From Tubulanus polymorphus (lineage: Eukaryota > Nemertea > Palaeonemertea > Tubulaniformes > Tubulanidae), in the NCBI RefSeq assembly GCF_964204645.1, contig NC_134032.1, positions 8,860,275 through 8,924,274 of the forward strand: a stretch of DNA of 64,000 nucleotides. Reading direction: 5' to 3'. Shown in pieces: positions 7,792-60,225 of this stretch. Below the pieces are notes generated by a model. It was given only the letters and a program-made list of their open reading frames with translations. It was not told the origin of the DNA and did no database searches. A program made the position numbers and the translations under genes. How positions within the stretch are numbered: position 1 is the first letter of the stretch; each line of letters begins with the position of its first letter.

Positions 7792-7863
7792 ATGCCTCGC
7801 GGCGTTCTACCGAACCGGTTTGATCTATCTAAGCATAGAGTGAATACTGAAGATGTATCAGAG
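7792..7863 (+). CDS. Proposed first coding exon of the giant gene
   Basis: The downstream tail exon (12190-13111) has no in-frame Met and an in-frame stop upstream of its acceptor, so the start must lie in an earlier exon leaving in phase 0. Here an ATG follows an in-frame TAG by one codon, runs 24 codons (beginning [10 protein letters not shown]) and ends in GAG before a strong donor GTAAGA at 7864, in phase 0. The peptide is hydrophilic, as expected of a cytoplasmic N-terminus. Other start exons in the next 4.3 kb are possible; this is the best one I found. Confidence 0.55.

Positions 7864-60225: not shown

What the first reader, a model, noticed from the sequence alone, without database searches (positions are those of the whole stretch)
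7792..60225. A single membrane protein combining a giant mucin, two SEA domains, 16 LDLa, 3 MAM, 3 SRCR and 3 serine proteases
53 exons join in frame over 52 kb with every splice phase closing, to give about 4,631 residues. Seen: the exon chain and domain motifs. Known: polyserase-1 has three tandem proteases and enteropeptidase has SEA/LDLa/MAM/SRCR/protease, but I know of no described protein that also carries two mucin arrays. Inference: a surface mucus-tethered protease complex, possibly for digestion, defence or epithelial barrier turnover.
Basis: partly seen in the sequence, partly recalled or inferred. Interest (0 to 1): 0.93.

Follow-up and report, generated by a model that had tools for sequence, protein, structure and literature searches.

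The report
Mucin-stalked membrane protein with three proteases
An unidentified animal carries one very large predicted gene whose product would be a cell-surface mucin with three intact-looking, non-trypsin proteases built into it, a new combination of familiar parts that could act as a protease cascade held out on a slippery stalk.

Summary
Pfam finds 2 SEA, 3 MAM, 3 trypsin-fold domains, 15 separate LDLa stretches of 16 expected, and 1 of 3 SRCR at its cut-off. Phase closure is weak evidence for one gene. Better evidence is a sister gene 37 kb beyond the window, same strand, in which the counterparts of exons 2-6, an LDLa1-like array and exons 43-53 follow each other without the middle block. 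All three proteases have enteropeptidase as best solved match, but D189 of trypsin-like enzymes is S, S, T, and the residue before each mature N-terminus is Tyr, where 30 of 33 readable other S1 stretches of this genome have Arg. Best reading: an enteropeptidase-derived polyprotease on a probably self-cleaving mucin stalk, activated after Tyr instead of by a tryptic cut. The architecture is supported; the cascade is inference. New variant of a known kind. No transcript could be examined.

The parts
7792..7863 (+). exon 1, start codon, cytoplasmic N-terminus (24 aa); least certain end of the model
   Evidence: donor GAG|GTAAGA, phase 0; no blastn counterpart in the sister gene region
12190..13111 (+). 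exon 2, cytoplasmic tail and single transmembrane helix (about residues 308-331)
   Evidence: hydropathy maximum 2.64; sister exon 61% aa identity, dN/dS 0.55
13886..13966 (+). exon 3, short juxtamembrane linker
   Evidence: conserved in the sister gene, 80% aa identity, dN/dS 0.29
14493..15410 (+). exons 4 (14493-14673) and 5 (15253-15410): SEA domain 1, motif FRNGSVIAD across the junction
   Evidence: Pfam SEA 39.7 bits; sister 88% and 75% aa identity
15996..20723 (+). exon 6: mucin array 1, 1,576 aa, 12-residue repeats, 45% Ser+Thr; weak acceptor
   Evidence: 36-bp tandem array, 123.6 copies; open frame 15926-20752; composition
20858..20962 (+). exon 7: degenerate LDLa-like cysteine pattern, tentative exon
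   Evidence: phase 1-1, added by the retrained automatic model; no Pfam match at E<=10
21549..22173 (+). exons 8 (21549-21726) and 9 (22013-22173): SEA domain 2, motif FRPGSIVAT; exon 9 was missed by the automatic model
   Evidence: Pfam SEA 53.6 bits on the joined exons
22269..23183 (+). exon 10: mucin array 2, 305 aa, 10-residue repeats, 52% Ser+Thr; frame depends on exon 9
   Evidence: 30-bp array, 27 copies; other frames are open too
23278..23580 (+). exons 11 (23278-23385) and 12 (23479-23580): LDLa 1 and 2
   Evidence: Pfam, 2 stretches; LDLa1 resembles the sister's LDLa array
23744..24699 (+). exons 13-15 (23744-23867, 24416-24517, 24650-24699): SRCR 1
   Evidence: Pfam SRCR_2 36.4 bits, cut-off 27
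25123..27101 (+). exons 16-19 (25123-25294, 25739-26025, 26351-26496, 26945-27101): protease 1, Tyr before VVNG, Ser at 189, Ser at 226, Met or Thr at 216
   Evidence: Pfam Trypsin 2e-54; enteropeptidase 1ekb 1.2e-54; alignment
27360..27467 (+). exon 20: LDLa 3
   Evidence: Pfam, segment with 3 stretches
28241..29720 (+). exons 21-23 (28241-28407, 28837-28968, 29534-29720): MAM 1
   Evidence: Pfam MAM, segment with 3 stretches
29975..30085 (+). exon 24: LDLa 4
   Evidence: Pfam, segment with 3 stretches
30639..32449 (+). exons 25-27 (30639-30785, 31320-31484, 32252-32449): MAM 2
   Evidence: Pfam MAM, segment with 3 stretches
32862..32964 (+). exon 28: LDLa 5
   Evidence: Pfam 30.1 bits alone
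33498..35229 (+). exons 29-31 (33498-33649, 34674-34816, 35022-35229): MAM 3
   Evidence: Pfam MAM, segment with 3 stretches
35571..37270 (+). exons 32-35 (35571-35681, 35970-36077, 36713-36823, 37160-37270): LDLa 6-9
   Evidence: Pfam, 4 stretches
37647..38538 (+). exons 36-37 (37647-37767, 38405-38538): SRCR 2, degenerate, identified mainly by its place
   Evidence: SRCR_2 14.7 bits, E 0.049, below cut-off
39061..41382 (+). exons 38-41 (39061-39232, 39739-40007, 40627-40763, 41220-41382): protease 2, Tyr before VLNG, Ser at 189, Asn at 226, Phe or Pro at 216
   Evidence: Pfam Trypsin 3.8e-55; enteropeptidase 2.3e-42; alignment
42495..49938 (+). exons 42-47 (42495-42599, 44107-44217, 45474-45593, 46569-46784 with two domains, 47868-47975, 49822-49938): LDLa 10-16
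   Evidence: Pfam, 6 stretches of 7 expected; exon 42 alone 23.9 bits; exons 43-47 conserved in the sister gene
50869..51242 (+). exons 48-49 (50869-51007, 51085-51242): SRCR 3
   Evidence: SRCR_2 20.4 bits, E 8.3e-4, below cut-off; sister 93% and 85% aa identity
52155..60225 (+). exons 50-53 (52155-52338, 54507-54805, 56046-56185, 60034-60225 with stop): protease 3, Tyr before MIGG, T189/G216/D226; end of the protein
   Evidence: Pfam Trypsin 1.1e-49 on the joined exons; enteropeptidase 1.2e-40; sister 79-90% aa identity per exon

Best explanation
One gene encodes a type II transmembrane protein that is at once a transmembrane mucin and a polyserase. A tail of about 300 residues anchors it; a membrane-next SEA domain, a 1,576-residue mucin rod, a second SEA domain and a 305-residue mucin rod then carry the business end far from the membrane: [LDLa x2, SRCR, protease 1]-[LDLa/MAM x3, LDLa x4, SRCR, protease 2]-[LDLa x7, SRCR, protease 3]. 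It most likely arose from an enteropeptidase-like membrane protease by repeating the SRCR-protease cassette and gaining mucin. Inferred working: both SEA domains self-cleave at the G|S bond and hold together non-covalently, so the protease head can be let go; the three zymogens are switched on by cleavage after Tyr, not Arg/Lys. Protease 3 (T189/G216/D226) is the likeliest activator, with a chymotrypsin- or crab-collagenase-like pocket; proteases 1 and 2 (Ser at 189, no acid) would cut after non-basic residues, perhaps elastase-like. LDLa and MAM modules would bind partners or substrate. Shown: gene model, domains, motifs, catalytic and pocket residues. Inferred: specificity, activation route, SEA cleavage, place in the body.
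For: 53-exon frame with one stop and all canonical splice sites; Pfam domains; a sister gene on the same strand in which counterparts of exons 2-6, an LDLa1-like array and exons 43-53 follow each other, 15 of 15 compared exons keeping length modulo 3 and frame, overall dN/dS 0.35, dS of similar size at both ends, which ties the 5' and 3' halves together; in the 258-bp gap between protease 1 and LDLa3 no AATAAA/ATTAAA, no ATG in frame and no phase-1 ATG-donor pair; one clear TM in 4,631 aa; enteropeptidase as best solved match of each domain; catalytic triad in 3 of 3; Tyr at the activation site in 4 of 4 family domains against Arg in 30 of 33 readable other S1 stretches; S1 classes as described in PMC11172050 (passages); both SEA domains carry G-S-[VI]-[IV], in MUC1 GSVVV (PMC4456727, passages).
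Against: No transcript or protein data. The fully automatic best chain scores higher than the curated one (1,113.4 against 1,094.6) and is not the same gene: it misses exons 4 (all but its last 34 bases) and 9, reads mucin 2 in another open frame, truncates LDLa1, ends the gene at 58813 and puts exon 53 into a separate two-exon gene. I overrode it because it breaks SEA1, SEA2, LDLa1 and protease 3; exons 4 and 53 are confirmed by the sister gene, exons 9-10 are not. The protease 2 to LDLa10 link is favoured by only 7.8 log units (35.1 for protease 1 to LDLa3), less than the gene-start penalty of 10, and a poly(A)-type hexamer lies at 41436, about 20 bases after a read-through stop, so a shorter isoform is possible. 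Exons 12-42 have no counterpart in the sister, so selection on them could not be measured. Residue 216 of proteases 1 and 2 depends on the alignment (against 60). SEA self-cleavage is by motif only.
Confidence: 0.6

Rival explanations
1. Two or three neighbouring genes: a mucin-SEA-SRCR-protease 1 membrane protein, followed by one or two further LDLa/MAM/protease genes, wrongly chained because LDLa modules are of the 1-1 phase class.
For: 21 of 51 internal exons are 1-1, so LDLa exons join anything of that class; an ATG at 42455 is in frame with LDLa10; AATAAA/ATTAAA at 41436 and 41868; splitting after protease 2 costs only 7.8 log units, and the automatic model itself detaches exon 53.
Against: The next hydropathy peak after the TM is 1.68 against 2.64 and lies inside protease 1; no start found in the 258-bp gap before LDLa3; the best free right-hand gene after protease 2 reads LDLa10 out of frame, and the one that starts at the 42455 ATG is 20.5 log units worse than the single gene; the sister gene has the mucin half and the protease 3 half colinear.
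Confidence: 0.13
2. One gene with tissue-specific short forms, ending after protease 1 or 2 by intron retention and early poly(A), so that the full 4,631-aa product is only one isoform.
For: Read-through of the last exons of protease 1 and 2 gives tails of 39 and 11 residues before a stop; AATAAA/ATTAAA at 41436.
Against: Donors at 27101 and 41382 score 4.3 and 3.3 in the retrained model; two hexamers in 1,112 AT-rich bases are about what chance gives (my estimate, no call).
Confidence: 0.2
3. A canonical enteropeptidase: a trypsinogen activator with Arg/Lys specificity that gained mucin.
For: Similar module kinds (TM, SEA, LDLa, MAM, SRCR, protease) and best solved match.
Against: D189 replaced by S, S, T; Tyr in place of Lys/Arg at the activation site; no CUB match at E<=0.01 in the seven segments scanned.
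Confidence: 0.05

Closest known systems
Enteropeptidase (TMPRSS15)
   Same: Type II membrane protease with SEA, LDLa, MAM, SRCR and an S1 domain, heavy and light chains linked by a disulphide (PMC9663175, passages); best solved match of all three proteases, for protease 3 only just ahead of hepsin
   Different: Three protease domains instead of one, 16 LDLa, three MAM, two SEA, two mucin arrays, no CUB found; not D189; Tyr activation site
Polyserase-1 (TMPRSS9)
   Different: The passages seen list only TM, one LDLa and three proteases, and say the chain is cut into independent units; here SEA, MAM, SRCR and mucin are added and pockets are non-tryptic
Insect Nudel
   Same: TM-anchored polypeptidase with many LDLa and two S1 domains, LDL(2)-SP-LDL(2)-SPH-LDL(3) (PMC11172050, passages); protease 2 passes the cut-off of PF09342 (31.1 against 25.2 bits), a family that I recall as Nudel-type
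   Different: The beetle Nudel listed there has an Arg activation site, a D-G-G trypsin pocket and a second domain without the triad; only LDL modules are listed
SEA-type transmembrane mucins (MUC1, MUC16)
   Same: Tandem-repeat mucins with SEA domains; SEA2 FRPGSIV is close to the MUC1 GSVVV site (PMC4456727, passages)
   Different: Opposite topology here (N-terminus inside) and a protease head
MALRD1-type MAM and LDLa proteins (recalled)
   Same: Alternating LDLa and MAM modules, as in exons 20-31
   Different: No protease, mucin or SEA recalled for it

Membership tests
Type II transmembrane serine protease | cytoplasmic N-terminus and single TM near it | tested here: met
   one clear hydropathy peak at about 308-331 of 4,631 aa
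Type II transmembrane serine protease | stem with SEA, LDLa, SRCR or similar, then S1 domain | tested here: met
Type II transmembrane serine protease | trypsin-like specificity (D189) and Arg/Lys activation site | tested here: not met
   S189, S189, T189 and Tyr before the mature N-terminus in 3 of 3; so it is filed as built like and derived from a TTSP, not as a canonical one
Polyserase | several S1 domains in one translated chain | tested here: inconclusive
   three in one open chain in the gene model; no transcript could be examined
Polyserase | catalytic triad in at least one domain | tested here: met
   3 of 3
Enteropeptidase | two CUB domains among LDLa, MAM and SRCR | tested here: not met
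   no CUB match at E<=0.01 in the seven segments scanned; the mucin exons were not scanned
Enteropeptidase | cleaves trypsinogen after Lys | not testable with these tools
   pocket residues argue against it
Transmembrane mucin with SEA | Ser/Thr/Pro-rich tandem repeats with SEA and TM | tested here: met
Transmembrane mucin with SEA | SEA autoproteolysis | not testable with these tools
   motif present in 2 of 2
Nudel | trypsin (D-G-G) domain plus pseudoprotease domain with LDLa | tested here: not met
   none of the three has Asp189 and none lacks the triad

The most novel reading that the evidence does not exclude
A complete protease cascade in one molecule: three zymogens on one auto-cleaving mucin stalk, in which protease 3 cuts after Tyr to activate itself and the two non-tryptic, perhaps elastase-like domains beside it, so that the cell surface carries self-igniting, sheddable proteolytic bottle-brushes that do not depend on any tryptic activator. 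(Lowered from 0.25 on checking, because residue 216 of proteases 1 and 2 depends on the alignment.)
Probability: 0.22. Interest if true: 0.8.

Novelty: new variant of a known kind. Interest (0 to 1): 0.6.

Why it matters
It would join two protein classes that are usually studied apart, transmembrane mucins and membrane-anchored serine proteases, in one polypeptide. It also departs from the pattern that membrane proteases of this type are tryptic and activated at Arg/Lys: here 4 of 4 family domains, including the sister gene, have Tyr at that place. The sister gene gives a natural pair, with and without a 31-exon block, that shows how such giants may grow or shrink between LDLa exons of the same phase.

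Tried and rejected
Rejected exons: the automatic models added, among others, 31905-31952, 44919-45053 and 52406-52501 and 48840-48860, 57654-57763 and 58252-58530, missed most of exon 4 and all of exon 9 and mis-ended the gene; I dropped or replaced these by hand because they broke domains. Exon 20858-20962 was kept as tentative only. Organism: not identified; a COX1 search of the assembly found nothing and the arthropod cuticle search did not complete. Structure prediction was not used: its rule admits proteins that the DNA gives letter for letter, and the domains of interest are spliced. A retroelement origin for the many LDLa open frames was dropped: the one tested is a receptor. In one search the two 'forced left' scores are wrong because I set the stop one base off; one search replaces them. 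One search ended in a script error after its activation-site table; the tree part was redone. For the activation-site control 40 stretches were picked by hand from the 149 rows (rows that begin near profile position 1, two intronless genes included); 33 were readable, 7 not; several other first-exon rows were not fetched.

Literature: seven searches bore on this protein and one on the receptor family. None of the listings showed a protein with mucin arrays plus three proteases. I saw listings with the starts of abstracts, and passages of PMC11172050, PMC1435904, PMC9663175, PMC4456727 and PMC6626399. No animal protein database could be searched, so it is not shown that no known protein has this architecture.

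Full report
What was checked. The window is C8:8860275-8924274 of a 267.8-Mb, 77-contig assembly of an unnamed animal. I listed open frames, wrote a small exon-chaining program and curated its output. The curated chain had 51 exons and 4,566 residues with a single stop. Three later changes brought it to 53 exons and 4,631 residues: exon 13886-13966, in a stretch 81% identical over 140 bp to the downstream gene; exon 20858-20962, an LDLa-like cysteine pattern picked up by the retrained model; and acceptor 37647, chosen by that model instead of 37656. All 52 acceptors are AG and all 52 donors GT.

Curation against the program. The retrained automatic chain scores 1,113.4 and the curated one 1,094.6, so the program alone would not have given this gene. 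It misses most of exon 4 and all of exon 9, reads mucin 2 in another open frame, truncates LDLa1, ends at 58813 and leaves exon 53 in a separate two-exon gene. I overrode it because the curated joins complete SEA1, SEA2, LDLa1 and protease 3, which Pfam then recognises. Exons 3, 4, 5 and 53 are confirmed by the sister gene; exons 9 and 10, and so the frame of mucin 2, are not. The model was trained on this gene's own curated exons, so the reverse-strand control (201 against 1,113) is biased towards the forward strand.

Domains. Pfam: two SEA, three MAM stretches, three trypsin-fold domains, LDLa stretches 2+3+4+6 = 15 at E<=0.01 where I count 16, and one SRCR over cut-off. Exon 42 alone scores 23.9 bits against 24.1, SRCR3 20.4 and SRCR2 14.7 against 27, and exon 7 has no match at E<=10. 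The mucin exons hold 1,576 and 305 residues with 45% and 52% Ser+Thr, built from 36-bp and 30-bp units. There is one clear membrane helix; the second-highest hydropathy window lies inside protease 1.

One gene or several. Phase closure alone is weak: 21 of 51 internal exons are 1-1. In my model the single gene beats a split after protease 1 by 35.1 log units and a split after protease 2 by only 7.8, less than the start penalty of 10; the best right-hand gene in the latter case reads LDLa10 out of frame. Between protease 1 and LDLa3 there are 258 bases, with no AATAAA/ATTAAA and no start that fits; between protease 2 and LDLa10 there are 1,112 bases with two such hexamers (41436, 41868), one weak ATG-donor pair and an ATG at 42455 in frame with LDLa10. 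A gene starting at that ATG, with the left part ended by read-through, is 20.5 log units worse than the single gene.

The sister gene. tblastn and blastn of the window against the next 90 kb (L010-L018) show a second gene at about C8:8961036-8997790, same strand and order: cytoplasmic tail, TM, the short exon 3, SEA1, a mucin array of the same 36-bp unit (41.6 copies), an LDLa array, then counterparts of exons 43-53 with SRCR3 and protease 3. I found no counterpart of SEA2, mucin 2 or LDLa2 to LDLa10. In 15 of 15 compared exons length modulo 3 and frame are kept; dN 0.111, dS 0.316, ratio 0.35 overall; dS is 0.27-0.44 in the four 5' exons and 0.07-0.54 in the eleven 3' exons. The automatic model reads it as one gene, with a wrong end; I did not search it for other starts. 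Since the 5' and 3' ends of the window gene occur there as one colinear unit, they very probably form one gene in the window too. The block of exons 12-42 lies between 1-1 LDLa exons, as expected of insertion or deletion by exon shuffling. Which form is older is not known. The sister's array holds 23 LDLa1-like copies found by tblastn, largely in 1,509-bp units; 12 of 23 have a GT donor and 11 of 23 have GA there and may not be spliced in. A search of the whole assembly for SEA gave 2 matches, both in the window; the sister's SEA was found only by tblastn, so that search is not exhaustive.

The proteases. The best solved matches are enteropeptidase for protease 1 (1ekb, E 1.2e-54), protease 2 (1ekb, 2.3e-42) and protease 3 (7wqx, 1.2e-40, with hepsin next at 5.8e-40). 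His57, Asp102 and Ser195 are present in all three. The alignments place Ser, Ser and Thr where enteropeptidase has Asp189 and Ser, Asn and Asp at 226 (residue numbers assigned by me). At 216 protease 3 has Gly; protease 1 has Met but Thr, protease 2 Phe but Pro. By the scheme in PMC11172050 (passages), bulky 216 marks elastase-like pockets, and acidic 226 occurs in insect chymotrypsins and in crab enzymes that cut both tryptic and chymotryptic substrates. The residue before the mature N-terminus is Tyr in all three and in the sister: PY-VVNG, SY-VLNG, PY-MIGG, PY-MIGG. As a control I fetched 40 hand-picked first-exon stretches of other S1 genes out of the 149 rows: 33 were readable, of which 30 have Arg and one each Gln, Leu and Phe; 7 could not be read. 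Proteases 1 and 2 are 41% identical and group together (support 0.961), 1-3 and 2-3 are 37% and 34%, and protease 3 and the sister's are 82%, so the cassettes are old duplicates and the sister is much younger.

How it probably works (inference unless marked). The SEA motifs FRNG-SVIA and FRPG-SIVA (seen) resemble the MUC1 GSVVV site (PMC4456727, passages), so both SEA domains should self-cleave and leave the protease head held non-covalently, on about 1,900 residues of mucin. The CGK cysteine before each protease (seen) should keep each activated domain tethered by a disulphide, as heavy and light chains are in enteropeptidase (PMC9663175, passages). Tyr activation sites together with a pocket in protease 3 that may accept Tyr suggest self-activation and activation of its neighbours.

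What is known. Polyserase-1 is described with TM, one LDLa and three S1 domains (PMC1435904, passages). Nudel of insects has LDLa and two S1 domains, one inactive (PMC11172050, passages). My paper searches listed nothing with mucin arrays plus three proteases; this covers the open-licence library only and no animal protein database. I therefore call it a new variant of a known kind.

Noticed in passing
G000:C8:8961036-8997790 (L013 6762 to L017 3516): Tandem sister gene: TM-SEA-mucin-LDLa array-SRCR-one protease; 23 LDLa1-like exons, many in near-identical 1,509-bp units, 11 of 23 without a GT donor.
   Followed up: yes
L019 2829-6140 (minus) and many places on C6, C12, C5, C10: Many of the 150 listed LDLa matches lie in uninterrupted open frames of about 1,100 aa; the one tested has 4 LDLa, leucine-rich repeats and a rhodopsin-type 7TM region, so this looks like a large expansion of LDLa-LRR receptors.
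   Followed up: partly
G000:C11:11920172-12016424: About 100 kb dense with MAM matches on the minus strand, including open frames of 1,859 and 1,064 aa with many MAM repeats.
   Followed up: no
L060, L061, L062: Other mosaic proteases of the genome, as modelled: a neurotrypsin-like gene, a corin-like gene and a CUB-LDLa-type gene (names by my reading of the sequences, no family search run).
   Followed up: partly
window 2594-3313 (minus): A 240-aa open frame with a weak match to a 7TM chemoreceptor family, PF10323, 23.3 bits against a cut-off of 21.
   Followed up: no
window 13611-13854, 42664-42936, 46819-46933, 47543-47794: Similar-looking minisatellites of about 37-41 bp with the word GTGGAAC in several introns of the gene.
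   Followed up: no
window 55545-55828 and 31691-31936: Short intronic repeats of the type GGCCCGGGCCAAATTTGGCCCGACC.
   Followed up: partly
window 8621-8919 and 26028-26140: A 299-bp TA run in intron 1 and an exact GAGAGG array that begins at the third base of intron 17.
   Followed up: no
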